This document shows, one piece after another, positions 1,639 through 48,947 of a stretch of DNA of 64,000 nucleotides. Below the pieces are notes generated by a model. The model saw nothing but the letters and a program-made list of their open reading frames with translations, had not been told where the DNA came from and made no database searches. The translations under genes and the position numbers were made by a program. The stretch comes from CAVSKL01 sp963728475 [NCBI: Candidatus Eiseniibacteriota bacterium] (GTDB taxonomy: Bacteria > Eisenbacteria > RBG-16-71-46 > JABDJR01), in assembly GCA_963728475.1 (NCBI GenBank), contig CAVSKL010000001.1, forward strand, positions 1,426,001 through 1,490,000, given 5' to 3'. Within the stretch, counting starts at the first letter, position 1, and each line of letters begins with the position of its first letter.

Positions 1639-4287
1639 TCAGCGGATGCGCACCGCCCGCTGCACCAGGTCCCGGTCCGCAGTCCGTAGCCGGATGAAGT
1701 AGATGCCGGCGGCGCCGGTCGCGCCCCGGTCGTCGCGCCCGTCCCACACCGCGGCGTGGCGGCCCGCGGAGAGCTCGCCCTCCACCAGCGACCTCACCCG
1801 GCGCCCGCTCAGGTCGTAGACCTCCAGCCGGACCTCGCCGGCGCGGGCCAGTTCGAACTCGATCCGGGTGGAGCCGGCGAAGGGGTTGGGGGCGGCGGGT
1901 GAGAGCACGGCCACGCGAACGGTCCCGTTTGCGTCCGGGACCCCCGTCGTGGGCTGGATGCTCACCGGCACCGTCTCCGAGGCCATCGCCACCGGCGTGG
2001 ACCTACCGTGCGCGGTCCAGGCCGCGTAGAGGTCGTCCCCGGCGGAGTTGGTGTGGTTCTCGTCCCGCAGGAACTCCACGTACTCCTTGCTGGTGGATTG
2101 GTAGAAGAGGGTCACCCGCACGCTCTCCGCCTCGGCGGGGAGGAGGTACCGCGTGTCGTCCCAGTACTGGCCGTCGGCGTAAGCGCGGCCCACCGGGGGG
2201 GACTGGATCGTCTCGAACTGGGAGTTGGTGAAGCCCCGCGGGGGGATCCGGTCGTCCTCGTAGACGGTGTCGTTGAGCACGAAGTGGAACGAGGGGGCGG
2301 CCGGGAGCCCCAGAGCCGAGGCCAGGGACGGGCTCAGCCCGGGGTGGATCGCATAGACCTTGGCGTCGGCGTCCTCGGTGAGGACTCCGGTCGCGAAGTC
2401 GTAGGCGCCGGATTCGTACACGGTCTGCCCGGCCGCGTCCACCGCGGCCACCTGGAGCCAGAGCCGGCGCCCCTCGGGATAACCCGAGGGGAGCTTGTGG
2501 CCGGTCTCGTTGGTGACCCGCACCGTGATCCCGGCGGAGTCGGGGGTGACCTCCAGGGTCGCCGCCTTCTGAAGCATCGCGACGGCCCGCGCCTTGGCCG
2601 CGGCCAGGGCGGTGGCGTCGACCTCACCCGGATACATTCCGGCGAGAACGTCGGGAATGAAGGTGTTGCCGCCGGTGAAGTCGTGCACCCCGAGATCGGT
2701 TCGCGCCTGGATCCCGTTCACGTTGCAGCCCTTGGCGCTGGCGTCGGCCATGTGGCAGTCCTCGCAGGTCGAGACGATCCCGTCGGGTTTGGTCCCGGCG
2801 AACTGCGGCGCGTAGACCCCGCTCGTCGCGTACTCGCTCTGCCCCCATTCGCTGAACGTCCGCTCCACGGGGAACATGTTGCGCAGATCCATGTCCGGAT
2901 GCTCCTGGTCCAGCACCGCGGGGGCGTAGTCCACCGCCCCCGTCTTCACGAACACGGGGTTGGAGACGTCGTGACAGGTGCCGCAGAGATTGCTGCTGCG
3001 GTGGATGGGGGAGGCCGCGAACTCGTGGCTGGCCTGGGCGTCGGAGTAGGGGCCGCGTTTGAGGGGGGCGGGGTCGTTGACGAACTCTCCGTTGGCGTAC
3101 TGGAGCGGCGGCGAGGGGAGGGCGGCCAGGACCTGGTAGTCCTGGAGCGGGCTCACCCCCGCCTCGTAGACCGGGTCCACGATGCGGTGGCAGAAGTCGC
3201 ATTGCACCCCCTGGCGGTCGGTGGCGGTGAGGAGCCCGCCCCCGGTGTCCGCGGATCGGCCTTCCTGCCATCCTCCCGGGGTATGGCACCGGAGGCAGAG
3301 GTCGCCCACCGAGGGCGCGTCCTGCTCCGCCACCGCCATGCAGGCCAGGAAGAAGGGATCGCGGGCGGCCTGCCCCATCATGCTCCCGCGCCAGGTCTGC
3401 CACGGTTCGTGGGTCGGGTCGTAGTTGCCGTGGCAGGTCACGCAGGTGACCGAGGGATCGTCGAGCACCGCCCCCTGGAAGGGCTGGGTGCCGGGCAGGC
3501 GCATGTCCCGAAGCGTGGTGGGGACGCGGCCGTAGCCCACCGTCGACACGGTGAAGTCGGCGTCTCCGGCGTCGGATCCCGGGTTCCCCGCCATGTCCAC
3601 CGCAGTGACCCGGATGCGGGCGTGAGTGCCGGGCAGGTTCTGGACGAACCAGGACCAGCTGCCGGTCGGGGGCCGGCGGGCGGCCACCGGTTCCCAGGTG
3701 GCTCCGGAATCGTCCGAGAAGTCCACGTTCACGTAGTCCACCCCGCCCGCGTCGGCGGCGGTGTAGCTCACGGTGACGGTGGTGCCCGGGGTCACCATCC
3801 CCCCGCCGTTGGGCGAGACCACGGTGACCGACGGCGGCGTGGTGTCGCTGGCTCCGGAGGGGGTGAGGTACGGAATCACCTCGCTCTGGGTCACGTTCAG
3901 GACGCCCCCCACGTTTCCCGAGGAAAGCCCCGGGAAGGTGGGGGTGTTGCCGTACGCGGTGCTGGTGATCTCGGTGAGGTTGGTGGAGCCGTCGCCGTCG
4001 GAGTCGCCCCCCTCGATGGCGTGGAAGGCGTCCACGTTGGTGAAGCCGGCGGCCCGCTTTACCTCCACCGCAAGCCCGTAGGGATTGCGGGGTCCGCCGC
4101 CGTTGAAGTCGAAGTGGCACACCCCGCAGTGCCCGGGGTGGCTCGGCAAGTCGTCGAGCTGGGTCCCCACCGCGTTGGGATAGGTGGAGAAGAAGTCCTT
4201 CCGGATGAACGGCTTTCCCGCCGCCTCCGCCGGGATCAGAGCGAGAACGAAGGAAACCAGGAACAGTACGCGGGTCCAGCGCCTCAT
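1639..4287 (-). CDS. Secreted six-heme cytochrome c with FlgD-like C-terminal sorting domain
   Basis: About 882 residues. The ATG at 4287 is preceded by GAGGAGGGGGG and starts a classical signal peptide (MRRWTRVLFLVSFVLALIP), so the 17 residues further upstream are not needed. Six CxxCH heme sites are visible: CGVCH, CVTCH, CLRCH, CDFCH, CGTCH and CEDCH. Between the first and second lies an Ig/Bacterial-Ig-like segment (TPPSVTVVSPNGG...). The C-terminal 80 residues form a FlgD-type Ig tail (SPAAPNPFAGSTRIEF ... GRDDRG ... GIYFIRL), which in FCB bacteria targets proteins to a type IX-like secretion system. It resembles cytochrome c family proteins thought to act in extracellular or periplasmic electron transfer. 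The redox partner is unknown. Confidence 0.85.
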   Translation of the reverse strand: MRRWTRVLFLVSFVLALIPAEAAGKPFIRKDFFSTYPNAVGTQLDDLPSHPGHCGVCHFDFNGGGPRNPYGLAVEVKRAAGFTNVDAFHAIEGGDSDGDGSTNLTEITSTAYGNTPTFPGLSSGNVGGVLNVTQSEVIPYLTPSGASDTTPPSVTVVSPNGGGMVTPGTTVTVSYTAADAGGVDYVNVDFSDDSGATWEPVAARRPPTGSWSWFVQNLPGTHARIRVTAVDMAGNPGSDAGDADFTVSTVGYGRVPTTLRDMRLPGTQPFQGAVLDDPSVTCVTCHGNYDPTHEPWQTWRGSMMGQAARDPFFLACMAVAEQDAPSVGDLCLRCHTPGGWQEGRSADTGGGLLTATDRQGVQCDFCHRIVDPVYEAGVSPLQDYQVLAALPSPPLQYANGEFVNDPAPLKRGPYSDAQASHEFAASPIHRSSNLCGTCHDVSNPVFVKTGAVDYAPAVLDQEHPDMDLRNMFPVERTFSEWGQSEYATSGVYAPQFAGTKPDGIVSTCEDCHMADASAKGCNVNGIQARTDLGVHDFTGGNTFIPDVLAGMYPGEVDATALAAAKARAVAMLQKAATLEVTPDSAGITVRVTNETGHKLPSGYPEGRRLWLQVAAVDAAGQTVYESGAYDFATGVLTEDADAKVYAIHPGLSPSLASALGLPAAPSFHFVLNDTVYEDDRIPPRGFTNSQFETIQSPPVGRAYADGQYWDDTRYLLPAEAESVRVTLFYQSTSKEYVEFLRDENHTNSAGDDLYAAWTAHGRSTPVAMASETVPVSIQPTTGVPDANGTVRVAVLSPAAPNPFAGSTRIEFELARAGEVRLEVYDLSGRRVRSLVEGELSAGRHAAVWDGRDDRGATGAAGIYFIRLRTADRDLVQRAVRIR

Positions 4288-4582
4288 ATCGCACCCCCCT
4301 CCTCGGAGATCTATCCGAATGACCGCCCTCGTTTCCACCCTAGTCCTGCGTGATGGAGAAAATGGCGGGGAATATGGAATTCAAGAAATCCGAATATCCT
4401 GTCGGCCGTCTTTACAGGCGAGACGGCTTCTCACTGCCGCCGGCCCCGGCAACCCGCTGTGGCGCCGACACCTGTGTGGTAGGATCGGTCCGCGGGGGCG
4501 GGTCCCCGGGGGCGGGGCCTCGGGCAGGGGCCGGAGGCCCGGCGGGCCGGCGGAAGCGCCCTCCCCACCGGAAGGAGGCGTC

Positions 4583-4822
4583 GTGAAGCTCAAAGTCGTT
4601 TACTGTTCCGCCTGAGGCTACGAACCCAGGGCCGTCGGTCTGGCGGCCGAGGTATTGCCGTATTTCAAAATGGACCTCGAGGAATTGATCCTGGTCCCAT
4701 CCGATCGGGGCCGGTTCGAGGTCTCCCTGGACGAGGAACTGCTCCACTCCAAGCTGGAGACCGGGAGGTTTCCCGAGAACCGGGACATCGTGAAGGCGGT
4801 GGAGGCCAGGCTGCACGGGTAA
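4583..4822 (+). CDS. Selenoprotein W-like (Rdx family) protein with in-frame TGA for selenocysteine
   Basis: Reading from GTG 4583 gives ten residues (VKLKVVYCSA), a TGA at 4613-4615, then 68 more residues in the same frame to TAA 4820-4822. Read with Sec at position 11 the 79-residue product has the Rdx redox motif CSAU followed by GYEPRA, then the conserved G-x-FEV and SK-x-x-TGRFP blocks of the SelW/SelT/SelH thioredoxin-like family. GAAGGAGG precedes the GTG by five bases. Twenty-one bases after the TGA a hairpin with G at the loop start fits a bacterial SECIS element (separate entry). Gene finders would stop at the TGA and miss this gene. It lies 28 bases before the LpoB-like gene and may share its transcript. 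Conservation on both sides of the TGA argues against chance. Confidence 0.87.
4613..4648 (+). promoter_or_regulatory. Candidate bacterial SECIS element after UGA
   Basis: The stem GGCCGTC (4630-4636) pairs with GGCGGCC (4642-4648), seven pairs including one G-U, closing a five-base loop GGTCT (4637-4641). The loop begins with G and starts 21 bases after the TGA. Both features match the known consensus for bacterial SECIS, where loop distance is about 16-37 bases and a G sits in the first two loop positions. It would recruit SelB with Sec-tRNA. Confidence 0.72.
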
Positions 4823-4850
4823 CCGGGGGCCGATGAGAAGGAGGTTCGGG

Positions 4851-5456
4851 ATGCGAGGAATGGTGCGCCCCACGTTGGGTCTGCTGGCGGCGGGGATGGT
4901 CCTCCTGGGATGCGCGGGGAAGACGGTGACCCGGGTCGGAACCGATACCACCGTGGATCTTTCCGGCCGCTGGAACGACACCGACTCCCGGCTGGTCGCC
5001 GACGAGATGATCCAGAGCTCGCTGGCCGACCCCTGGCTCACCGACTACATGCAGGCCGAGGGGGACAAGCCCACCGTGATCGTCGGCACCATCCGCAACA
5101 AGACCGACGAGCACATCCAGACCGCCACCTTCGTGGGCGACATCGAGCGCGCGTACGTCAACTCCGGCAAGGTGCGGGTGGTGGCCACCGCCGCCGAACG
5201 CGAGGAGATCCGCGACGAGCGGATGGACCAGGGAAAGTACGCCTCGGACGAGACGATCAAGAAGTTCGGGCTGGAGCAGGGCGCCGACTTCATGCTGATC
5301 GGCACCGTCTCCTCGATCACCGACCAGGAGGGGGGGACCCAGGTCCGCTTCTACCAGGTGGATCTCACCCTGGTCGACATCCAGTCCAACGAGAAGATCT
5401 GGATCGGCCAGAAGAAGATCAAGAAGGTCATCGGGCGGGGCAAGTACCAGCCGTAG
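4851..5456 (+). CDS. LpoB-like lipoprotein (penicillin-binding protein activator family)
   Basis: About 201 residues. I chose the ATG at 4851 because AAGGAGG ends six bases before it; an ATG at 4833 is in frame but lies upstream of that site. A short signal ends in the lipobox LLGC. The mature part carries the LpoB/DUF-type pattern: DLSGRWNDTDSRLVADEMI, PTVIVGTIRNKTDEHI, ERAYVNSGKVRVV and GADFMLIGTVSSI. In Gammaproteobacteria LpoB stimulates PBP1b from the outer membrane; in other phyla the family role is less certain. It is directly followed by a COG3014-like lipoprotein, seven bases downstream, so the two form an operon. Confidence 0.82.
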   Translation: MRGMVRPTLGLLAAGMVLLGCAGKTVTRVGTDTTVDLSGRWNDTDSRLVADEMIQSSLADPWLTDYMQAEGDKPTVIVGTIRNKTDEHIQTATFVGDIERAYVNSGKVRVVATAAEREEIRDERMDQGKYASDETIKKFGLEQGADFMLIGTVSSITDQEGGTQVRFYQVDLTLVDIQSNEKIWIGQKKIKKVIGRGKYQP

Positions 5457-5463
5457 GGGCCGG

Positions 5464-6840
5464 GTGCCCGCCGTGAACGCGCGTCTCGCCTCCGCGCTCG
5501 CCGTCCTGCTCCTGGCCGCCGGGTGCGCGGGAGCGCGGCTCGACACCGCCGGCTTCCAGTCCGACGTGGCCCAGGGGCGTTACGCCTCCGCCCTGGCCGG
5601 ACTCCGCCGGGCCGGGGACTCCACCGACGTCTCGGTGCTCCTGGACCGCGGCCTGTTGTTGCAGGCGCTCGGCCGCTTTCCGGAATCCAATCTCGCTTTC
5701 GCCGAGGCCGAGGACCGGATCGAGGACCTCTACACCCGGAGCCTCGGCAAGGAGGCGCTGGCGCTTCTCACCAGCGACCGGGCCCTGGACTACCGCGCCT
5801 CCGGCTATGAATACGCCTACGTGGCCTATTACCGGGCGTGGAACTACCTGGCCCTGGGGCGCGCCGAAGACGTGCTGGTGGAAGCCCGCCGGATCGGGGA
5901 GCGGCTCACCTTCCGCGCCGACACCTGCCCCTCCGAGGACGGCGCCTGCGGACACGACGTGTTTCTCCGCTGGTTCAGCGGGCTCCTGTTCGAATGGGGG
6001 GGTGAGGACAACGACGCCTACGTGTCGTTCAAGCAGGCGGATCTCGCCCGCCGGACCGCGGAATCCCGGTACGGGATCGCCCCTCCCGCGGGCCTGGGGG
6101 AGCGGCTGATCCGCCTGGCCCGCGAGCTGGGATTCGAGGACGAGGCGCGGGAGTACGCGCGGACCTACGGCCTGGACCCCGACTCGGTGCTGGCCGGGCC
6201 CGCCTCGTCGGTGGTGGTGATCCTGGAGAACGGGACCATCGGCCGGCGGGTGGAGACGTCGCTCACCGTGCCCATCCTGAAAGGCGAGACCGAGGAGATC
6301 GAGCGCGATCGCGAGGGCTGGTCGCGGAAGCTGGCCGGACGCGCCCACCGGCACCACGAGAACGTGAAGCTCGACTATCTCCTCCGGGTGGCGCTCCCCG
6401 AGTACGTGGCGCGTCCGCCGGCGGGGGTGGACGCGGTGTTCCGCTTCGGCCCGGCGGGGGGGGAGACGCGGCCGGCGGCGCCGCTTTCCGCCATGGCCGA
6501 GGCCTCGCTGGGGGACGCCATGAGCGGGATCCTGGTGCGGTCGGTGAGCCGGGCCCTGGTCAAGTACCTGGCCAAGCGGACCGCGGACGAGAAGATCGGG
6601 GAAGGGGCGGGCCTTCTGGTGAACCTGTTGGAGGCGGCCACCGAGAGCGCGGACACCCGGTCCTGGCGCTCCCTTCCCTATGAGATCCAGGTCGCCTCGT
6701 TTCCCGCCGCCGCCGGCCGGTACGCGGGAACCCTCACCGTGCAGGGCCCCGACGGCTCGGTCCTCACCTGGGAGTCCTTCCCCGACATCCGGGTGCCCCG
6801 CGACGGGGTGGCGTTCGTGCGCTACCGCTCCGGGCTCTAG
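5464..6840 (+). CDS. COG3014-like lipoprotein
   Basis: About 458 residues from GTG 5464; a second GTG at 5473 is an equally possible start. The N-terminus is a lipoprotein signal with lipobox LAAGC. The N-terminal half is helical and TPR-like (YASALAGLRRAGDSTDVSVLLDRGLLLQALGRF). The C-terminal half is a mixed domain with VVVILENGTIGRRVET and YEIQVASFPAAAGRYAGTLTVQGPDGS, similar to the COG3014 lipoproteins that neighbour LpoB-like genes in other bacteria. The spacing of seven bases from the LpoB-like gene supports co-function at the cell envelope. The molecular activity is unknown. Confidence 0.75.
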   Translation: MPAVNARLASALAVLLLAAGCAGARLDTAGFQSDVAQGRYASALAGLRRAGDSTDVSVLLDRGLLLQALGRFPESNLAFAEAEDRIEDLYTRSLGKEALALLTSDRALDYRASGYEYAYVAYYRAWNYLALGRAEDVLVEARRIGERLTFRADTCPSEDGACGHDVFLRWFSGLLFEWGGEDNDAYVSFKQADLARRTAESRYGIAPPAGLGERLIRLARELGFEDEAREYARTYGLDPDSVLAGPASSVVVILENGTIGRRVETSLTVPILKGETEEIERDREGWSRKLAGRAHRHHENVKLDYLLRVALPEYVARPPAGVDAVFRFGPAGGETRPAAPLSAMAEASLGDAMSGILVRSVSRALVKYLAKRTADEKIGEGAGLLVNLLEAATESADTRSWRSLPYEIQVASFPAAAGRYAGTLTVQGPDGSVLTWESFPDIRVPRDGVAFVRYRSGL

Positions 6841-20088: not shown

Positions 20089-20958
20089 TCAGTAGGCGAG
20101 CATGAGACGGAGCATGGAGTGGGGCCGGAAACCCACCCGTTCGTAGGCCCGGACGGCGGGGGTGTTGTCCGCGTTCACGTGGAGGGCCAGGAAGCGCAGC
20201 CCCTGCTCGTTGATCAGGCGGCGGGCCCAGGCGGCGATCCCGCGAGTGGCGTAGCCCCGGCCGCGGAACGCCGGATCGGTGTAGACCCCGCCCACCAGCA
20301 CCCCGTCCCCGGAGCGGGCCACTTCCTCGGTCTTGAACACCAGGCGCCCCCCCTTCATCACCACCCACACCTTCCCCGCCTCGATCCGCCCGCGGGAGAG
20401 CTCGCGCATGCGGGCCATGTCGAGGTGCGCCCGGGGGATGGCCAGGTCCTCCTCGGTCATGGCGGCGTGGGCCACGGTGATCTCGCGGAGCTCGTCGGCG
20501 ACCGCGGGGCGGATGCCGTCGTCCTCGGCCCGGAGGAGGTTCTCGGGCTCCAGGACCAGGTATGCCTGGGCGCGGTCCAGGTAGGGAACGACGGCGGCTC
20601 GGGAGAAGACCCGCCGGATGAGTCCGGCGTGGGCCGCCGGTCCCACGAAGAGCCGCGGGCTTCCCCCCGAGGTGAGCATGCGGTCGAGGGCGGCTTCCAC
20701 CGCGGCCACGGAGCCGTGGGTGGTGATGTTGCGCGAGTTCCCCAAGAACGCCACCCCGTCCAGGACCCCGGCCCGCCCGGCGCCGAAGAAACGCCCGTGC
20801 CCCTGGCGGTCGGTGGGGGAGAGTCCGAACTCGTGCACCAGGCTCCGCAGGTAAAGGGTGCCCTGGCGCTCGCCGTCGAGCAGCTCGGCCAGCGCGGGCC
20901 GGTCCTCGTCCACGAGGAGGCTGACATGGAGACCGTCGGTGCGGGACACTGAGCTCAT
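20089..20958 (-). CDS. GNAT-family N-acetyltransferase
   Basis: 289 residues from ATG 20958, with GGAGGAG four bases upstream. The C-terminal half is a clear GNAT domain: GGRLVFKTEEVARSGDGVLVGGVYTDPAFRGRGYATRGIAAWARRLINEQG with the acetyl-CoA loop R-G-R-G-Y-A, then LHVNADNTPAVRAYERVGFRP. The N-terminal half (LDGERQGTLYLRSLVHEFGLS ... FLGNSRNITTHGS) is a divergent second GNAT-like half as in DUF4081-type proteins. The acceptor substrate is unknown. Its start codon overlaps the most upstream possible start of the divergent neighbour. Confidence 0.88.
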   Translation of the reverse strand: MSSVSRTDGLHVSLLVDEDRPALAELLDGERQGTLYLRSLVHEFGLSPTDRQGHGRFFGAGRAGVLDGVAFLGNSRNITTHGSVAAVEAALDRMLTSGGSPRLFVGPAAHAGLIRRVFSRAAVVPYLDRAQAYLVLEPENLLRAEDDGIRPAVADELREITVAHAAMTEEDLAIPRAHLDMARMRELSRGRIEAGKVWVVMKGGRLVFKTEEVARSGDGVLVGGVYTDPAFRGRGYATRGIAAWARRLINEQGLRFLALHVNADNTPAVRAYERVGFRPHSMLRLMLAY

Positions 20959-22267
20959 GGGACTCCTCCAGGAAGGCCCCGAGAATAGCAGGCGATCCGG
21001 TCCGCTGGAACCGGCGGGGCCGGTGGCCACCCTCCCCACCCCCGCGCTCCTGGTGGACGAGGCCCGTCTCGCTCGCGCGCTGGCCGGCATGCGGCAGCTG
21101 GCCGCGGGGGCGGGGGTGCGGCTCCGCCCCCATGCCAAGAGCCACAAGTGCCCGGAACTGGGCCGGCGGCAGGAGGCCCTGGGAGCCGTGGGGCTCTGCA
21201 CCGCCAAGGTCTCCGAGGCCTCGGTCTTTGCCGCGGCGGGATTCGAGGATCTCACCGTCGTCTACCCCCTGGTGGGGCCCAAGGCAGATGCGCTGGCCGG
21301 GCTGGCGGCCCGGTTTCCCCGGGCGCGGTTCGGGGCGGCGGCCGACTCGGAGGCGGGGGTGGAGGCGCTGGCCGGGGCGGCCCGGAAGCGCGGGGTGAGC
21401 CTCGACCTCTGGCTGAAGATCGACAGCGGGCTCCACCGGGCGGGGCTGGAACCGGGGGACCCGCGGCTGGAGGCGCTGGCGCGGCGGGCGCGGGGCGCGC
21501 CGGGGCTGCGGCTGCGCGGGCTGGTCACCCACGGCGGACATGCCTACGCGGCGCCTCCGGAAGCGATGCCGGCGATCGGGCGCGGCGCGGCCGAGGCCAT
21601 GCTCCGGGCCCGGGACGCGCTGGCCGGCGCCGGGATCCTCGGGCTCGAGATCGCGCTCGGCGCGACCCCCACCATCCGCTACTCGGCCCGGGTCGCCGGG
21701 GTTGACGAGATCCATCCCGGGGTCTACGTCTTCGGCGACCGGCAGCAGGCGGCCCTCGGCGCGATGACCGTGGACGAGGCGTCCCTCACCGTGCTCGCCA
21801 CCGTGGTGAGCCGCCCCGCTCCCGGCCGGTGGGTGGTGGACGCCGGGTCCAAGACCCTCTCCAGCGATCGCGGCGCCCACGGGAGCGAGGCGGTGCGCGG
21901 CTTCGGCGCGGCGCGCCCGCCCGGCCGGCACCGGGCGCCCGGGGACGGCGACCCGCTCCCGTTCGCCGGCGGCCCGGTTCCCCGGGAAGCCGGCGGCCCG
22001 GATCCCCGGGAAGGCGGCGGTCCGGATCCCCGGGAAGCCGGCGGGTGGGCGGGCGCGGCGCTCCTCACCCGGCTCTCCGAGGAGCACGGCGTGATCGAGA
22101 GTGATCGCGACCCGGGCTGGGAACCGGGCGACCGGGTGGAGATCCTCCCCAACCACGCGTGTGCGGCGGTGAACCTGGCCCGCACGCTCCACCTCACCGC
22201 GGGGGAGGGGGAGGATCGCCGGGTGGTCGCGGCGTGGCCGGTGGCGGCGGCCGCCCACACCGCCTAG
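20957..22267 (+). CDS. D-threonine aldolase / D-serine dehydratase-like PLP enzyme
   Basis: Up to 436 residues from ATG 20957; that ATG overlaps the divergent GNAT start and lacks a ribosome site, so GTG 21023 (VATLPTPALLVD) may be the real start. The fold-type III PLP barrel begins LPTPALLVDEARLARAL with the PLP lysine in RLRPHAKSHKCPELG, and WLKIDSGLHRAGLEP and THGGHAYA follow. PNHACAAVNLA near the end carries the His-x-Cys metal site of D-serine dehydratases, whereas D-threonine aldolases have His-x-Asp. It may therefore remove ammonia from D-serine-type substrates. A 24-bp minisatellite adds an 8-residue GGPDPREA repeat in the C-terminal domain. Confidence 0.82.
   Translation: MGLLQEGPENSRRSGPLEPAGPVATLPTPALLVDEARLARALAGMRQLAAGAGVRLRPHAKSHKCPELGRRQEALGAVGLCTAKVSEASVFAAAGFEDLTVVYPLVGPKADALAGLAARFPRARFGAAADSEAGVEALAGAARKRGVSLDLWLKIDSGLHRAGLEPGDPRLEALARRARGAPGLRLRGLVTHGGHAYAAPPEAMPAIGRGAAEAMLRARDALAGAGILGLEIALGATPTIRYSARVAGVDEIHPGVYVFGDRQQAALGAMTVDEASLTVLATVVSRPAPGRWVVDAGSKTLSSDRGAHGSEAVRGFGAARPPGRHRAPGDGDPLPFAGGPVPREAGGPDPREGGGPDPREAGGWAGAALLTRLSEEHGVIESDRDPGWEPGDRVEILPNHACAAVNLARTLHLTAGEGEDRRVVAAWPVAAAAHTA
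21968..22039. repeat. Three 24-bp tandem repeats inside a PLP enzyme gene
   Basis: Three consecutive 24-bp units encode GGPVPREA, GGPDPREG and GGPDPREA. The length is a multiple of three, so copy-number change would keep the frame. The insert lies between the barrel and the metal-binding C-terminal block of the enzyme. Confidence 0.85.
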
Positions 22268-37350: not shown

Positions 37351-40300
37351 GTGATCGCCAAGCTGATCGGTCTCTGCGTCCGGAACCGGGCGATGGTGGT
37401 GCTCCTCACCGTGTTCGTGATCGCGGCCGGGATCTGGTCGGTCTACCACATCACCGTGGACGCGATCCCGGACCTCTCCGACGTCCAGGTGGTGATCCGG
37501 ACCGAGTATCCCGGCCAGGCTCCGCAGATCGTGGAGGACCAGGTCACCTATCCGCTCACCACCGCCATGCTGGCGGTCCCCTTCGCCAAGGTGGTGCGCG
37601 GGTACAGCATGTTCGGGACCAGTTTCGTCTACATCATCTTCAAGGACGGGACGGATCTCTACTGGGCCCGGAGCCGGGTGCTGGAGCAGCTGAGCGCGAT
37701 CTCCGGGAAGCTCCCCGGCGGCATCTCGCCGCAGCTGGGCCCGGACGCGACCGGGGTGGGCTGGATCTACGAGTACGTGCTCACCACCGGCAAGTACTGC
37801 CCGGACCATCCCGACGGCGCCTGGCACGATCCGGTCACCGACAGGTGGTATGCGAGCCCGGACCGGGCCCCCGACGTGCCCGCGGTCCGCGAGCGGCTGA
37901 TCCACCACCGGGTGTTCCAGGACACCAAGCTCGCCTACGTGGACCCGGTCGACAGCCGCCGCTACGGCTCCCCGGAGGCCGCCCCCGCCGCCGACCGCGA
38001 CCGGCTCACCAGGGTGGTGCTGGTCCGGGGGCGGGATACCTGCCCTCTCGACGGCAAGCCCCTGGTCCGACCCGACCTCGACCTCTCCGAGCTGCGGAGC
38101 CTCCAGGACTGGTACCTGCGCTACGAGCTGAGCGCGGTGGAGGGGGTGAGCGAAATCGCCTCCCATCGGCGGGTTCGTCAAGCAGTATCAGGTGGTGGTG
38201 GATCCGGTGAAGCTCCTCGCCTACAACATCTCTCTCTCCAAGGTGAAGCAGGCGATCCAGCGCTCCAACATCGACGTGGGGGGGCGGCTGATCGAGCAGA
38301 GCGAGACCGAGTACATGGTGCGGGGGATCGGCTATCTGGGCACCCTCACCGACGAGGAGATCGCCCGGGCCAAGGCGTCGGGGGAGTCGGTGAACCGGCT
38401 TCGCACCGAAAAGGCCCTGGATGAGCTCCGCAAGGTCTCGCTCGGCGCCTCCGAGGACGGATCCCCGATCTACCTCTCCAGATGTGGCCGGCGTGCGGGT
38501 CGGCCCCGAGATCCGCCGCGGGGTCGCGGACTGGAACGGGGAAGGCGAGACGGTGGGCGGAATCGTGGTGATGCGATTCGGCGAGAACGCGCGGGTCACC
38601 ATCGACCGGGTGAAGGCGAAGCTGGCCACGCTGGAGCAGGGGCTGCCGCCGGGGGTGGGTCATGGAGGTGGCCTACGACCGGAGCGACCTGATCGATCGC
38701 GCGGTCCACACCCTCGACCACACGCTTGATCGAGGAGATCCTGATCGTCTCGCTCATCTGCATCCTGTTCCTCCTCCACGCCCGCTCCGCGCTGGTGGCG
38801 GCGTTCGTGCTTCCCACCGGGGTGCTGGCCAGCCCTCGCCATCATGAACGCGCTGGGGATCAACGCGAACATCATGAGCCTCGGGGGGCATCGCGATCTC
38901 GATCGGGGTGATGGTGGACAGCTCCATCATCATGGTGGAGAACGCCCACAAGCACCTGGAGTACGAGAAGCACCGGGTGGAGGGGGGCGGCGCTCCCCGG
39001 AGCCGCGCCGTGGTGATAACCGAGGCCGCGCGCGGAGGTGGGGCCGAGCCTCTTCTTCGCCCTTCTCATCATCGTGGTGAGCTTCCTGCCGATCTTCGTG
39101 CTCGGGCGAGCAGTCGGGGCGGATGTTCAGGCCGCTGGCCTTCACCAAGACCTTCGCCATGGCCTCCGGGGCGGTGCTGGCGGTGACCATCATTCCGGTG
39201 CTGATGGTGTTCTTCATCTCCGAGCGGGTGGTTCCGGCGGCCTGGAGCCGGCGGCGGCGGCTGGGGACCTACCTCGCCGTAATCGGGCTCCCCGCCCTGG
39301 TCCTGGCCGTCGTCCCCCTGGGGCGGCTGGGCGCCCACCGCTGGCCGGTGGTGGCGGTCTGGGTGCTCCTCTCCGGGCTCATGATCCTCCCCCAGCGGAT
39401 CCCCACGGAGCGCCGCAACCCGCTCAGCCGGGTGCTGGAGTCGGCCTACAATCCGTTCTTCATTCTCGCCATGCGCTTCCGATGGCTGGTGATCGTGGGA
39501 GCGGCGGTCCTGGTGGGGGTGACGGTGGTGCCGCTCCGGCACCTCGGGCAGCGAGTTCATGCCGCCCCTGGAGGAGGGGGACCTCCTTTACATGCCCACC
39601 ACCGATCCCGGGCATCAGCATGACCAAGGCGCGGGAGCTCCTCCAGCAGACCGACGACCTCATCAAGCAGTTTCCCGAGGTGAAGACGGTCTTCGGCAAG
39701 GCGGGCCGCGCGGAGACCGCTACCGACCCCGCTCCGCCGAGCATGTTCGAGACCACCATCACCCTCCGCCGGGACAAGGACCGGTGGCGGACGGTTCCGG
39801 TGCACCGGTTCTTCAGCTCGTGGCCGGGGGTGCTGCGGAAACCCCTGGGTGCCGTCTTTCCGTTGGCGCGGCCGATCACCATCGACGAGATGGTCTACGG
39901 CTACAACTGGCCGGACGGGACCCACGTTCCGGGACTCAACGAGGTGATGAACATCCCCGGCCTCACCAATTCCTGGACCATGCCGATCAAGACGCGCATC
40001 GACATGCTCTCGACCGGGATCAAGACCCCGGTGGGGATCAAGGTGATGGGGCCGGATCTCGAGACGCTGTCGGAGCTCTCCAACCGGATCGCCCAGGTGG
40101 TGAAGACTTCGGAGGGAACCAGCCAGTACACGGTGAGCGCCTTCCCCGAGAAGAGCGTGGGCGGGAACTACTTCGACATCGAGGTGAACCGGGACGAGAT
40201 CGCCCGCTACGGCCTCACCGTGGGGGACGTCCAGGACGTGATCATGTCGGCGATGGGCGGCATGAACATCGGCGGCACGGTGGAAGGGCTCCAGCGCTAC

Positions 40301-41142
40301 CCGATCAACCTCCGCTACCCCCAGGAGCTTCGGGACAACCTCCAGGCGCTGAAGCAGACCCTGATCGCCACCCCCGGCGGCGCCCAGGTCCCGCTCGACC
40401 AGGCTGGCGACCTTCCGGATCCACAAGGGCCCGCCCATGATCAAGAGCGAGAACGCCCGGCTCACGAGCTGGGTGTTCGTGGACATCGCGGGGATCGACG
40501 TCGGGACCTACGTGGCCAACGCCCGGAAGGCGGTGAGCGGGAAGGTCCAGCTCCCGTCCGGCTACAGCCTGGTGTGGTCGGGGCAGTACGAGTACATGGA
40601 AGCGGCGCGGAAGCGGCTCATGATCGCGGTCCCGCTGGCCTTCGTGGCCATCGTCCTGCTGCTCTACCTCTCGACCCGGAGTTGGCTGCGGGTGGGGATC
40701 GTCCTTCTGGCGGTGCCGTTCAGCCTCGTCGGCGCGATCTGGCTGCTCTGGTTCATGGGGTACCACCTCTCGCTGGCGGTGATGGTGGGGATGATCGCCC
40801 TGGCCGGACTGGACGCCGAGACCGGTGCTGGTGATGCTCCTCTACCTGGACACCAGCTACGAGCGGTTCAGGTCCGAGGGGCGTATGCGGGACGCCAACG
40901 ACCTCTGGCACGCCGTTCACGACGGGGCGGTGAAGCGGATCCGGCCCAAGACGATGACGGTGGTGGCGATCTTCATGGGCCTGGTTCCGCTTCTCTGGGC
41001 CCACGGAGCGGGCGCGGACACCATGCGACGGCTGGCGGTTCCCATGATCGGGGGGGTCGGCACGAGCTTCGTGCTCGAGCTCCTGGTATTCCCCGCCATC
41101 TTCTTCACGGTGAAGACCCTGACCCTTCGCCGGAAGGCGTGA
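37351..41142 (+). pseudogene. cusA: CusA/CzcA-type RND heavy-metal pump, split by twelve +1 frame shifts
   Basis: GTG 37351 starts [47 protein letters not shown], a standard CusA N-terminus, and the frame is intact to 38163. Then the coding frame shifts by +1 near 38164, 38480, 38660, 38725, 38834, 38888, 39034, 39107, 39549, 39613, 40403 and 40824; each is one extra base, mostly lengthening a short G or C run. Joined, the segments give about 1259 residues with conserved CusA blocks ([53 protein letters not shown]). A 90-residue insert with CPDHP and CPLDGK lies in the first porter region. As written it cannot make a full pump; a sequence error is as likely as decay. Confidence 0.88.
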
Positions 41143-41220: not shown

Positions 41221-44200
41221 TCAGTTCATGATGAACATCCGCTTGACCGCGGTGAAGTCGCCGGCCTGGATGCGGTAGAAGTAGATCCCGCTCGCCACCG
41301 GCTTACCCGCGGTGTCCCGCCCGTCCCAGGTGATCTTGAAGTTCCCCGCCGGGAGTTCGCCCGGGGTGAACGACCGGACCGCCCGGCCGGAGACGTCGAA
41401 GATCGTGAGTTCGACCCGCGACGGCGCCGGCAGATCGAACCCGATCCGGGTGGCGCCCCGGAACGGGTTCGGCGAGTTCTGGTAGAGGGCGTGGACCTTG
41501 GGGGTGATTCCCCCGGTTCCGGCGGCGGCCTGGGTGATGTGGAAGGCGGCGTCGGAGCCGTCGTACCCCATCACCCCGTGGTTATCGAACAGGTAGACCC
41601 GCATCCGCGCGGTGTCGGTGATCTCCTCCGGCACCAGCCAGTTGTAGGTTTCCCCCTGCACGCCGTCGGCGACCAGATTCCAGCTCACGCCGTCGTCCAC
41701 CGAGTAGTAGAGGGCGGCGTGGTCCACCGGCCATCCCTGAGGATCGGTCCAGGCGAGGTCCACCCGCATCCCCTGCGCGAAGTACTCGCCGCCGTTGGGC
41801 ACGGTCAGGTGGGGCCGGATCACCCGGATGACGGCGGTGCCCACGAAGCAGGCCACGTCGTCGATCTCGCCGCTGATCGTGACCGCCACCGAGTCGCCCG
41901 CGTCCAGCGCCGCCTCCACGTCCGCGCGCAGGAACTTGAACGACCAGTCGGGAACTCCGTTGTTGTTGAAGTCGCCGATCGAGGACTTGTTCGCGTCCGC
42001 GACCACGGCCCCGTTCAGGGTCACCGTGGACGGGTCGACCAGGCTCGGGTCGTACTCCGGCGGCAGCTCCACGGAGCCGGTCACGTACTTTCCGTTGCTG
42101 CCCATGTTGAGGGTGTTGGGATCCATGCTGACCGCGGTGGCGTACACGGTGAGGACGTGGAACATCACCTCCATCGACTCGTTGGGGTTGGCCGGATCGT
42201 TGGAAGTCATGGTCACGGCCCCGGTGTAGTCGCCTTCGTCGAGCGCCGACGCGTCCATGGTCACCGTCATCTCCAGGCACTGGCCCGGGGCCACCGTCCC
42301 GCTTTCGGGCGAGACCGAGAGCCAGGCCGGCCGGGTCGAGAACAGGACGGCCATGCCGGTGTGCAGGTACTCCGCGTTGTAGACCACGGTCAGGCCGTCG
42401 TTCTGGGCGCCGTTCTGGATGCCGACGGTGGAGCTGTTCACCGTTCCCGCCAGGTCCTTGTACTGGTACAGGACGTTCCCGTTGGGATACAAGATCACCT
42501 GGTAGGAGAAGTAGGGACTGGTGAACTCGCCCAGCCGGCGGACGTGGTCGAACTGGAACGTGGCCTTGGTGCCGTCGTAGTAGTAGTACGCGTCGGCGCC
42601 GTAACTCTCGTCGAAGACCATGTCGTCCCAGAACACCGCCAGCAGGTTCTCCGGCGCCCCGCTGTTGGGCAGCGGTTGGTTGCTGTACGCGGTGGACGAG
42701 CTGGTGAAGCTCATCCAGCCGTTGGTGCAGGCGCGCACCTGGGTGAAGTTCTGCCCGTAGAACGGGAACGAGAATCCGATGGGGAGCGGTCCGGAGTTGG
42801 CATCGTCGCGGTAGCCCCCGCCGAAGTCGAAGGCGGTGCCCACCGCGCTGATGTCGGTCCAGTCGTAGGCCGGGCCGCCGGGTTCGTCGCTGTCCGTCCA
42901 CCTGTAGCCGAAGGTGTCGGGTCCGCCGGTGCCCTGGATCCCGGGACGCGGGTCCTTGGCCTCGGCTCCGCCCTCGACGTCGGAACCCTTCGGGGTCTGG
43001 ACGAAGCCATAGACCACGACCGAGGCGCCGGCGTGCTCGGCGGCGGCGGCGGTGAAGGTCAGGTCGCTCCCGCCGGTATTGCACACCGTCATGATCTTGG
43101 TCTTGGTCTCACCGGGACAGGCCGCTCCGATCATGGTGTCGGGAGCCACCGTCATCACCGGCGCGACCACCCCGTTACCGAGCAGGGTCACGGTGCCGGG
43201 GGAGTCCGGGTCATTGCTGTTCACGGTGAGAACCGCGTTGCGCGGACCGGGCGCCAGGGGCGAGAAGGCCACGGTGACCTGGGCGCTCTGGAGCGGGTCC
43301 AGCTCCGCGGTGGCCGGACTCACCGCGTAGTCTCCCGACCCCGGCGACATCGAGGTCACCGAGAGATGGTCGGTTCCCACGTTGGTCAGGGTGAAGGAGA
43401 GAGTATCGGGATATCCGATGAACACGTTCCCGAAGTCGAGGCTGTCGGGGTCGAATCCCGCGCGGGGCACTCCGGTCACGTCCAGCCGCGCCCCCACCCT
43501 CAGGAGCCCGTGGGCGGGATCATTGGTCAGGATGCGGACCTCCCCGTCGTAACGCCCCCCGAAAAGGGTCCCGGCATTGAACCGGACGTTTACCGGCAGG
43601 CTCCCGCCGGCAGGGACCGTCCCCGTGGCCGGGGTCGCGCTCAACCAATCGGGGCTGCTCCCGATCCGGATGGCCAGGTCGTCGTGGGCGTAGGCCGTGT
43701 TGTAGACCACGTTGAGGGCCACGTCCCGGGTGTCGTTCTGGATCCCGATGGTGGCGCTGTTCACGGTGGCGCCCAGCGTCAGGTACTGGTAGACGATGGT
43801 CCCGTTCGGGTAGAGCAGGATCTGGAAGGTGTAGTAAGGCGGGGAATTGCTTCCGTACTTCTTGACCCCGTCGTACTGGATGACGAGCTTGGTCCCGTCA
43901 TATTCGTAGTACACCTGCCCGCCCACGCTCAGGTCCACCACCATGTCGTCCCAGAACACGGCCAGGAGGTTCTCGGGACCGCCCGGACTCGGCAACGGAT
44001 CGTTGCTCAAGTCGGAGGTGGTGTTGGTGAAGCTCACCCACCCGTTGCTGGAAACCCGGAAGTCGGTGAAGGTGTTTCCGTAGAAGGGGAAGGTGAACCC
44101 GACCGGGAACGGACCCGCGTTCACGTCGTCCGAGGTGGACGAGAAGACCGCGGTTCCGGTGGAGCTGATGTCCTGCCAGGAGAAGATCGGGCCGCCGGGC

Positions 44201-47200
44201 TCGTCGCTGTCGATCCACTGGTACCCGAACGAGTCGGGCCCGCCGGATCCCAGGATCCCCGTGCGCGGATCCTCCTCACCCTTGGCCAGCTCGTGGTCCA
44301 GGGGCGCCACCGGCGGGTTCTTGTCCGCCAGCGTGGTGAGGGTGTGGACCTCGAAGTTCAGATCGCTGGCCCCGGTATTGGTCAGGGTCACGGTCTGGTT
44401 TTCGATCTCGCCGGTCAACAGGTTTGCGTACACGCTGTCCGGGGTCACCGCGCCGGCCGGAGGTGGTACCCCTTCTCCGCTCAGCGCCACCGCCACCGTA
44501 GGCTCGTCGGCGTCGTTGCTGACCACCGACAGGACGGCCGAGGCCGGCCCCGGCACGGTCGGGGAGAATCGCACCGTGACCAGCGCCGCCTGGAGCGGGT
44601 TCAGGTGGAGGGGCAGGGTGATGCCGGTGAAGTCCACCCCGAAGGCCGGGTCGCTGGAGTTGAGCGCGGACACGGTGAGGAGATCGGTCCCCATGTTGCG
44701 GATGGTAAAGGTATGGAGATCCGGGTATCCCACGAACACCTGGCCGAAATCGACGGCGAGAGGACTCACGTCGATGTCGGGGGCGCCGGTGACGTTGAGG
44801 ACGGTAGGCACCGTCACCTGCGGGGCCACCGGGTCGTTGGTGTTGAGGATGACCCCGCCCTCGTAACGCCCGCCGAACAGGCCGGAGGCGTCAAGGAGCA
44901 CGTCCACGTGCAGGCTGTCGCCGGGCGGAACCGTCCCCGAGAGCGGGCTGGCGTTCAACCACGGCGGGGTGGCCGAGAAGCGCACCGCCAGGCCGGCATG
45001 GACGTAGTCGTCGTTGTAGACCACGGTGAGCCCGTCGTCACGGGCGGCGTTCTGGATGCCCACGGTGGCGCTGTTCAGGGTCGGCCCCATGGAGTCGTAC
45101 TGGTACACGACGGTCCCGTTCGGATACAGGATCAACTCGAAGTTGTTGTACGGCCCGGAGCTCTGACCCAGCTTGCGCACGTCCTGGAACTGGACGATGA
45201 GCCGGCTGCCGTCGTTGTAGTAGAACACCTGCCCGCCCACCGAGAGGTCCACGTTGAGGTCGTCCCAGAACGCGGCCAGCAGATTCTCGGGAATGTCCGA
45301 GGCGGAGGCGCTGGGAAGCGCGGTGTTGGTGTACCGGTGGCTGGTGCTGGTGAAGCTCAGGAACCCGTTCGAGCACACGTTGAACTCGGTGAACGAACTT
45401 CCGTAGAACGAGAACGCGAAGCCGATGGGGAAGGGCCCCAGGGTCACGTCGTCGTTGCTGCTGCCGGTGTAGACCGGGGTGCCCACCGCGCTGATGTCCA
45501 CCCAGTCGTAGGTGGGGCCACCGGCCTCGTCGCTGTCGATCCACTGGTAGCCGTAGTTGTCGGGGCCGCCCGTGCCCAGGACTCCCGGGCCCGGTTCCGC
45601 CGCGCCCTTGGCCAGCTCCGCCCCGGCATCGTACTGCTGGACCTGGGTTCCCAGATCGAGGGTGATGTCGAAGTCGAGGTCGGCTCCGCCGGTGTTCTGG
45701 ACGGTGAGCGTCTTGTGCACGCTCTGCCCGGTGAGGAGATCCGCGCTGAGCGAGGACGGGGTCACCGAGAAGTCCGGCGGCGGGACCGCCTCCCCGCTCA
45801 GGGCCACCGGGAGCGTGCCCTGGTCGGGGTCGTCGCTGGTGATGGTCATGACGGCGGGGTAGGTCCCCACCGAAGGCGGATCGAAGGTCACGGTCAGCCC
45901 GACCGCTCCGTGGGGCGGCACGTCGAATGCGGACTGGTCCGCGGTGTAAGCCCCGTCGTCGAATCCCACCGACGCCACGTGCAGGGTGTCGGTTCCCGGG
46001 TTCCGCACCGCGAAGTCCGCGGTGGGGGTGGACCCGAAGAACACCTGGCCGAAGTCGTAGGACGTGGGATCCACCGCGATGTCGGGCGCTCCGATCACGG
46101 TCAGGGTCACCGGGACCACGAACGGGTTCTCGTCGGGGTCGTTGCTGAAGACCCGGATGTTCCCCTCATAGGTTCCGCCCAGCAATCCGCCCGCGTCGAA
46201 GTTCACGGAGAGGGTGGTGTTGCCCGGTCCCAGCAGGGTTCCCGAGCCCGGAGCCACCGTCATCCACTGCGGCACCGCCTCGATCCGCAGCGCCAGATTG
46301 TCGTGGATGTAGTTCACGTTGAACGCCACCGTGAGCCCGTCGGACCGGGAGGCGTTCTGGATGCCCACGGTGGCGCTGTTTCCCGGCGACCCCATGGACA
46401 GGTACTGGTAGGTGATGCTCCCGTCCTGGTCCAGGATGGCCTGGAAGGTGTAGGGACCGCCGCCGTTGTAGTGTCCGACCGCGTCCCACTGGACGATGAG
46501 CTGGGTTCCGGTGTTCTCGAAGTACACGGTTCCGCCCGCCACGTCCAGGTCGTCCCAGAACGGCGCCACCAGCGCCGGCGGCGCGCCGCCGTTGGGGAGC
46601 GGCTGGTTGGAGTAGGCGGTGGAGTTGCTGGTGAAGCTCAGGAAACCGTTCGAGCACACCTGGAACTGCGAGTAGTTGACTCCGTAGAACGGGAAGTCGA
46701 ACCCGATCGGGAAGGGCCCCGAGCTCGCGTCGTCCCCGGTGGACATGGCCACGGTGCCGGAGGCCGAGATGTCGATCCAGGCGAACGCCGGGCCGACCGC
46801 CTCGTCGCTGTCCACCCAGCGGTAGCCGAATCCGTCGGGCCCGCCGCTGCCCAGCGTCACCGGATCGCCGGTCCGCGAATCCACGCCGCCCTTGGGCACG
46901 TCCAGGTACGCATAGACCGAGCTCGGGTTGGTGAGGAGTTCGGGGAGCGGAATCTGGAAGTCCAGGGTGGTGTTGGCGTTGACGTTGCTGAGGGTGAGGT
47001 TCTGGGTCGAGGTGGCTCCGGTGAGGAGCGTCTCGGTGAGGGAGGTCGGGGTCACGTCCACGTCCGGCGGCCCCAGCGTGGTGGCCGAGGCCACGTTGGA
47101 GACCGGGCCGGCGTTTCCGAACTCGTCCAGGGCCTTCACCGCGAAGTAGTACGGGGTGCTGAAGTCGAGCCCGTCCACGTGCATCGACTCCGGGGTCCCG

Positions 47201-48696: not shown

Positions 48697-48947
48697 GGCG
48701 CTACCTCCAGGTGTGATGAGGGGGGAGTGCGCATACGCCGGGGCAGCGGCGGATCGCCGAAGCCCCGGCCGCATGAAGACGGTCCCCCCGGTAATCGGCT
48801 TCGAAAAGGAGGGAGCGGGCCGAACTTCCTGGAGCGAGGGTGCGCAGGTTCCGCCGGGGCGGGCGCCCCGGCGGTCGCCTCTGCAATTCCGAAAATACCC
48901 GGCTTCAGGAGCGGAGTGTCTGGCCGAGCTCCCCAGCGTCACGTTTG

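What the first reader, a model, noticed from the sequence alone, without database searches (positions are those of the whole stretch)
4583..4822. Selenoprotein W-like gene hidden by an in-frame TGA, with a SECIS hairpin
The frame continues for 68 codons beyond TGA 4613-4615 and keeps the SelW/Rdx family motifs on both sides (YCSAU-GYEPRA, then FEV and SK..TGRFP). The redox motif becomes CxxU. A 7-bp hairpin with a G-starting loop lies 21 bases after the TGA, in the bacterial SECIS window. Standard gene calling would give a 10-residue fragment and lose the gene. Sec use in this lineage would follow.
Basis: partly seen in the sequence, partly recalled or inferred. Interest (0 to 1): 0.8.

Follow-up and report, generated by a model that had tools for sequence, protein, structure and literature searches.

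The report
Selenocysteine-containing SelW-like redox protein gene
A small bacterial gene is, on strong comparative evidence, read through a stop codon to insert selenocysteine, but it belongs to a selenoprotein family already known in many bacteria, so it is ordinary though easily overlooked.

Summary
Window 4583-4822 encodes a 79-residue Rdx/SelW-like protein if TGA 4613-4615 is read as selenocysteine; it matches Pfam Rdx on both sides of the TGA (E 1.7e-20). 83 of the 86 rows placed, the window's included, have TGA at this codon; orthologues from other genomes have Cys there. The hairpin (7 bp, loop GGUCU) meets four published bacterial SECIS criteria. Compensatory changes support it (6 of 7 pairs in 31 sequences, 0 of 500 shuffles as high). 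A stem of 5 bp or more is in 71 of 97 TGA rows and 0 of 28 Cys rows. A covariance model built without the window finds the site at E 1.2e-9. Total folding energy does not separate the two groups. Sec use by this organism is inferred: no genome is held and no tRNA or sel gene was found in this window. SelW-like CxxU selenoproteins are a long-known bacterial family, so this is a new member of a known kind, of low interest. The lineage was not determined.

The parts
4583..4822 (+). selW-like gene, 79 codons plus stop, GTG start, TGA at codon 11 read as Sec (CSAU motif = CxxU)
   Evidence: Pfam Rdx PF10262 E 1.7e-20; NCBIfam TIGR02174 60.7 bits over cut-off 34.2
4613..4615 (+). in-frame TGA, the predicted Sec codon
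   Evidence: TGA at this codon in 83 of 86 rows placed, window included; in the wider chosen set 97 TGA and 28 Cys (TGC/TGT) of 125 distinct rows
4630..4648 (+). predicted bacterial SECIS hairpin: 7 bp, loop GGUCU at 4637-4641, loop starting 21 nt after the TGA
4572..4578 (+). Shine-Dalgarno-like AAGGAGG, 4 nt before the GTG start
   Evidence: read directly from the sequence
4833..5456 (+). LpoB-family lipoprotein gene, next gene on the same strand, 10 nt downstream; context only
   Evidence: PF13036 E 1.4e-41; TIGR02722 106.5 bits, just under its cut-off 110.55

Best explanation
The locus is a bacterial SelW-like (Rdx family) selenoprotein gene. The ribosome starts at GTG 4583. At UGA codon 11, SelB bound to the hairpin 4630-4648 delivers Sec-tRNA(Sec), and translation continues to give a 79-residue thioredoxin-like protein with a Cys-x-x-Sec redox motif (CSAU). 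Shown here: family membership, conservation of the TGA, Cys counterparts, and a covarying hairpin that goes with TGA. Inferred: actual Sec insertion, presence of SelA/SelB/SelD/tRNA-Sec in this organism, the thioredoxin-like fold (from the family) and the redox role, whose substrate is unknown.
For: Read-through product matches Rdx on both sides of the TGA. All 4 relatives returned by the contig scan have TGA at that codon. In a sample of 297 genomes of the first hit's phylum, 85 have a homologue and 79 of these carry an in-frame TGA; 74 of those 79 also have a SelB match at E 1e-80 or better (hand count over). tRNA-Sec above the Rfam cut-off in 3 of the 4 genomes of the first relatives. Cys orthologues align residue for residue, e.g. 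CAACGYEPQAL against the window's CSAUGYEPRAV. Hairpin: contiguous stem mean 5.12 bp in 77 distinct TGA rows against 1.81 for synonymous recodings, highest of 2000 being 2.58; stem of 5 or more in 71 of 97 TGA rows and 0 of 28 Cys rows; 6 of 7 pairs with changes on both sides, 0 of 500 shuffles as high on any of five measures. The model built without the window scores it 50.2 bits, next place in the window 11.4. On 43 further loci the 14 TGA loci score 26.5-50.5 bits and no place in the 29 Cys loci exceeds 19.3.
Against: No Sec machinery was seen in the 64-kb window and the genome is not held. Total folding energy does not separate TGA from Cys rows (mean z -0.81 against -0.72, p 0.37). 16 of 77 TGA rows keep 3 or fewer contiguous pairs at the fixed position: 13 keep 2, one keeps 3, two keep none. 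The two outer pairs are unpaired in 19 and 15 of 31 sequences. 5 of 79 TGA genomes lack a SelB match at that level, perhaps from incompleteness, and SelB is also common in genomes without the gene (193 of 297 over the cut-off; 5 of the 6 genomes with only the stop-free form have it), so co-occurrence is supportive, not decisive. One of the 4 first genomes has no tRNA-Sec over the cut-off. No expression or protein data.
Confidence: 0.96

Rival explanations
1. The organism has lost Sec decoding and the gene is a recent relic (pseudogene) of a selenoprotein gene.
For: No Sec machinery seen in the window; no genome held to check. An efflux-pump gene near 37.3-41 kb in the same window is spread over several frames.
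Against: Apart from the TGA the frame is intact, with coding composition after the TGA (GC3 0.84, GC2 0.35). The hairpin is full length with the commonest loop (GGTCT, 29 of 77), and the model score of 50.2 bits lies at the top of the range of the 14 TGA loci tested (26.5-50.5).
Confidence: 0.03
2. TGA is reassigned (e.g. to Trp or Cys) or read through without Sec.
For: The frame is open past the TGA.
Against: The 28 rows without TGA all have Cys, none Trp. The composition scan for other in-frame TGAs gave 5 candidates: two are junctions between adjacent genes and three lie in frames with shadow-like composition. The hairpin goes with TGA and not with Cys.
Confidence: 0.005
3. The TGA is a sequencing or assembly error for TGC or TGT in a Cys-form gene.
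For: Cys-form orthologues exist, 28 of 125 distinct rows; the efflux-pump gene in the window shows frame breaks that could be errors.
Against: None of the 28 Cys rows has a stem of 5 bp or more at the SECIS position, while the window has all 7 bp with loop GGUCU.
Confidence: 0.005

Closest known systems
Bacterial SelW-like (SELENOW-like) selenoprotein, Pfam PF10262 / NCBIfam TIGR02174
   Same: Rdx domain over nearly the whole length, CxxU motif, in-frame TGA, SECIS-like hairpin just downstream. The family is listed under 'predicted with high confidence', with CxxU and PF10262, in PMC13188914 (passages seen); also PMC1794560 and PMC1088965 (passages seen).
   Different: Nothing of substance found; the closest relatives found are 52-55% identical.
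Cys-form SelW-like proteins of the Chloroflexi and Nitriliruptorales (Actinomycetota) phyla
   Same: Same family and flanking residues (e.g. CxxCGYEPQ)
   Different: Cys codon in place of TGA and no stem of 5 bp or more at the SECIS position (0 of 28 Cys rows, which include 6 from the first phylum).
Solved Rdx structures 3dex (SAV_2001), 2fa8 (Atu0228), 2npb (Selenoprotein W)
   Same: Sequence match over most of the protein (E 2.5e-9, 1.7e-8, 0.0022)
   Different: Remote sequence relatives; no structure was predicted here.

Membership tests
Rdx / SelT-SelW-SelH family | Match to the family profile above its curated cut-off | tested here: met
   PF10262 73.4 bits against 22.6; TIGR02174 60.7 against 34.2
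Campylobacter-type SelTWH equivalog NF041051 | Score above the curated cut-off | tested here: not met
   75.1 bits against 88
SelW-like selenoprotein | CxxU motif with in-frame TGA and Cys homologues at the same position | tested here: met
Bacterial SECIS (model as quoted in PMC13188914, passage) | 3-9 nt loop and 4-16 bp upper stem | tested here: met
   5-nt loop, 7-bp stem
Bacterial SECIS (model as quoted in PMC13188914, passage) | G in the first two loop positions | tested here: met
   GGUCU; 77 of 77 distinct TGA rows have it
Bacterial SECIS (model as quoted in PMC13188914, passage) | 16-37 nt between UGA and the loop | tested here: met
   21 nt (coordinates)
Bacterial SECIS (model as quoted in PMC13188914, passage) | MFE at or below -7.5 kcal/mol | tested here: met
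   -13.8 kcal/mol for the 24-nt stretch 4628-4651
Functional Sec-decoding trait in this organism | selA, selB, selD and tRNA-Sec in the genome | not testable with these tools
   no genome held; none seen in the window
Selenoprotein | Sec shown in the protein | not testable with these tools
   needs 75Se labelling or mass spectrometry

The most novel reading that the evidence does not exclude
The window comes from an uncultured phylum in which Sec use has not been described, so that this gene would extend the known range of the Sec trait. The two large proteins with FlgD_ig tails remind me of Eisenbacteria-like bacteria (recalled, not tested).
Probability: 0.15. Interest if true: 0.3.

Novelty: new member of a known kind. 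Interest (0 to 1): 0.17.

Why it matters
Gene callers that stop at TGA lose such genes, so annotation of this contig would miss a redox selenoprotein and a hint of selenium use by the organism. The family, the motif and the mechanism are otherwise well known. The one useful by-product is a Sec/Cys contrast: in the rows read here a stem of 5 bp or more stands in 71 of 97 TGA genes and in 0 of 28 Cys genes.

Tried and rejected
Search for the window's own genome: none held. Placement by a neighbour protein without a family match (5464-6840): 1 weak partial hit in 149 genomes of the first hit's phylum, which speaks weakly against that phylum. Cytochrome bd subunit I: up to 62-63% identity there, uninformative. 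Other phyla were not tried for placement. Viral contigs: 69 stretches matched a pattern, none encodes a relative. Scan of the window for further TGA read-through genes with coding composition on both sides: 5 candidates listed, of which two (20091 -, 37345 +) are junctions of adjacent genes and three (2570 +, 26949 -, 31720 -) have shadow-like composition; the target itself was not listed, because its upstream part fails the filter, so the scan is not sensitive to genes of this shape. The SECIS model found no second credible site in the window, next best 11.4 bits, E 0.66. Total folding energy as a discriminator failed. No structure prediction was run; the sequence match gives the family. Literature: 0 papers hold both 'selenocysteine' and 'Eisenbacteria'; the other searches are (listings).

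Rows dropped: of 89 loci given, 4 were not placed (L028, whose match starts after residue 11, and L043-L045); L043-L045 are of the Cys type and were placed. Identical rows were collapsed (86 to 80 distinct, then 125 distinct). Of the matches in the other two phyla only part was taken: L102-L105 and 40 chosen stretches, 20 stop-free and 20 with TGA, from the higher-scoring rows. The counts are therefore not a random sample, and rows within a phylum are related. One search was given 43 of the 145 loci then held. Of the 37 gene-like ORFs, 31 were scanned against families, plus 20089-21255; 10 only or also against NCBIfam, 24 against Pfam.

Full report
Observation. The coordinates and the frame are right. 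GTG 4583 is preceded by AAGGAGG at 4572-4578. Ten codons are followed by TGA 4613-4615, and the same frame runs 68 codons further to a TAA ending at 4822. With TGA read as Sec the product is 79 residues long, with the motif C-S-A-U. Composition after the TGA is coding-like (GC by codon position 0.68, 0.35, 0.84).

Family. The read-through protein matches Pfam Rdx over residues 3-74 at E 1.7e-20 and NCBIfam TIGR02174 (SelT/SelW/SelH) above its cut-off. The Campylobacter-type equivalog NF041051 is missed (75.1 against 88 bits). Solved relatives include SAV_2001, Atu0228 and Selenoprotein W.

TGA conservation. The four relatives returned by the contig scan (two Acidobacteria, one Chloroflexi, one Nitriliruptorales by record title) all have TGA at the same codon. 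In a sample of 297 genomes of the phylum of the first hit, 85 have a homologue; 79 of the 85 carry an in-frame TGA and 6 no stop. The six without a stop are of a CTQCRW Cys type. In the other two phyla 96 of 201 and 36 of 198 genomes have a homologue, with both TGA and stop-free forms. The stop-free forms fetched from there have Cys at that codon, giving Sec/Cys counterparts such as CAACGYEPQAL (Cys) against CSAUGYEPRAV (window).

Hairpin. The window forms a 7-bp stem (4630-4636 with 4642-4648) with loop GGUCU starting 21 nt after the TGA, -13.8 kcal/mol for the 24-nt stretch. This meets the four criteria of the bacterial SECIS model as quoted in PMC13188914 (passage). Across 77 distinct TGA rows the contiguous stem averages 5.12 bp, against 1.81 for synonymous recodings with codons from the family (highest of 2000: 2.58), and 77 of 77 have G in the first two loop positions. 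On 31 chosen sequences, window excluded, 6 of 7 pairs show changes on both sides and 0 of 500 shuffles reach the observed value on any of the five measures; slid structures reach at most 54.4% of cells paired against 81.6, and a covariation score of 0.101 against 0.320. Related sequences can exceed shuffles without structure, so the slid control and the Cys contrast matter more. The core is 5 bp; the two outer pairs fail in 19 and 15 of 31. A stem of 5 bp or more at this position is in 71 of 97 TGA rows and 0 of 28 Cys rows; the rows were chosen, not random. A covariance model from the 31 rows finds the window site at 50.2 bits, E 1.2e-9, next place 11.4 bits. On 43 further loci the 14 TGA loci score 26.5-50.5 and no place in the 29 Cys loci exceeds 19.3; some test loci nearly duplicate training rows, and the model also rewards the shared coding sequence.

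Results against. Total folding energy does not separate TGA from Cys rows (p 0.37). The 48-nt fold of the window has z only -1.17. 1519 of 20000 synonymous recodings of the window keep the full stem. In one search, 16 of 77 TGA rows keep 3 or fewer contiguous pairs: 13 keep 2, one keeps 3 and two keep none. The 13 all fail at the third pair from the loop, 10 of them with U opposite C.

Machinery. tRNA-Sec above the Rfam cut-off is present in 3 of 4 genomes of the first relatives; the same search is over the cut-off in 5 of 14 control genomes, and weaker matches occur in all, so only those over the cut-off count. SelB is over its cut-off in 193 of 297 genomes of the first phylum and in 2 of 14 controls. 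By hand count over, 74 of the 79 TGA genomes have a SelB match at E 1e-80 or better; the five without are G043, G073, G130, G290 and G293. Of the six genomes with only the stop-free form five have SelB and G065 has none. So SelB goes with the gene but is common without it. For the window's own organism nothing can be said: no genome is held, the window has no tRNA gene and no Rfam match at the gathering threshold, and none of 32 gene-like ORFs scanned matched a Sec-machinery family.

Mechanism. By established knowledge of bacterial Sec decoding (review PMC9312934, passages), SelB binds the hairpin and delivers Sec-tRNA to the UGA. The product is expected to be a thioredoxin-like redox protein. 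PMC1088965 (passages) calls the function unclear, with the CXXU motif suggesting a redox function. The 10-nt gap to an LpoB-family gene suggests, but does not show, co-transcription.

Known or new. SelW-like was the most abundant selenoprotein family in the Sargasso Sea data, with 48 genes, already under previously known families in 2005 (PMC1088965, passages). PMC1794560 (passages) lists it in Deltaproteobacteria, Clostridia and Symbiobacterium, and says that it has very few or no Cys homologues in Sec-containing organisms; here both forms are found in the same phyla. PMC13188914 (passages) lists it with CxxU and PF10262. PMC5029168 (passages and one section) found SelD in almost all bacterial lineages. 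The finding is real and ordinary: a new member of a known kind.

Noticed in passing
window 37351-41142: A CusA-type efflux pump gene (ACR_tran match at its N-terminal part) is spread over several reading frames, suggesting assembly errors or a decayed gene; the neighbouring CusB- and OEP-like genes each lie in one open frame.
   Followed up: partly
window 1639-4338 (-) and 41221-48942 (-): Two large proteins end in a FlgD_ig domain (the first also matches the T9SS sorting-tail model); the second is 2573 residues, a subtilase with HYDIN/ASH-type Ig-like repeats.
   Followed up: no
window 4833-5456 (+): An LpoB-family lipoprotein gene starts 10 nt after the selenoprotein gene, on the same strand; a possible operon, not tested in relatives.
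   Followed up: no
L103-L125: Cys-form homologues from the Chloroflexi and Nitriliruptorales phyla; most keep the flanking residues, and none has a stem of 5 bp or more at the SECIS position: a natural Sec/Cys contrast set.
   Followed up: yes
L035, L056, L075, L086, L089 and others: 10 of 77 TGA rows have U opposite C at the third pair from the loop (GCCUCCAGUCUGGCGGC in the loci named), perhaps an element with a special U as in E. coli fdhF (recalled).
   Followed up: no
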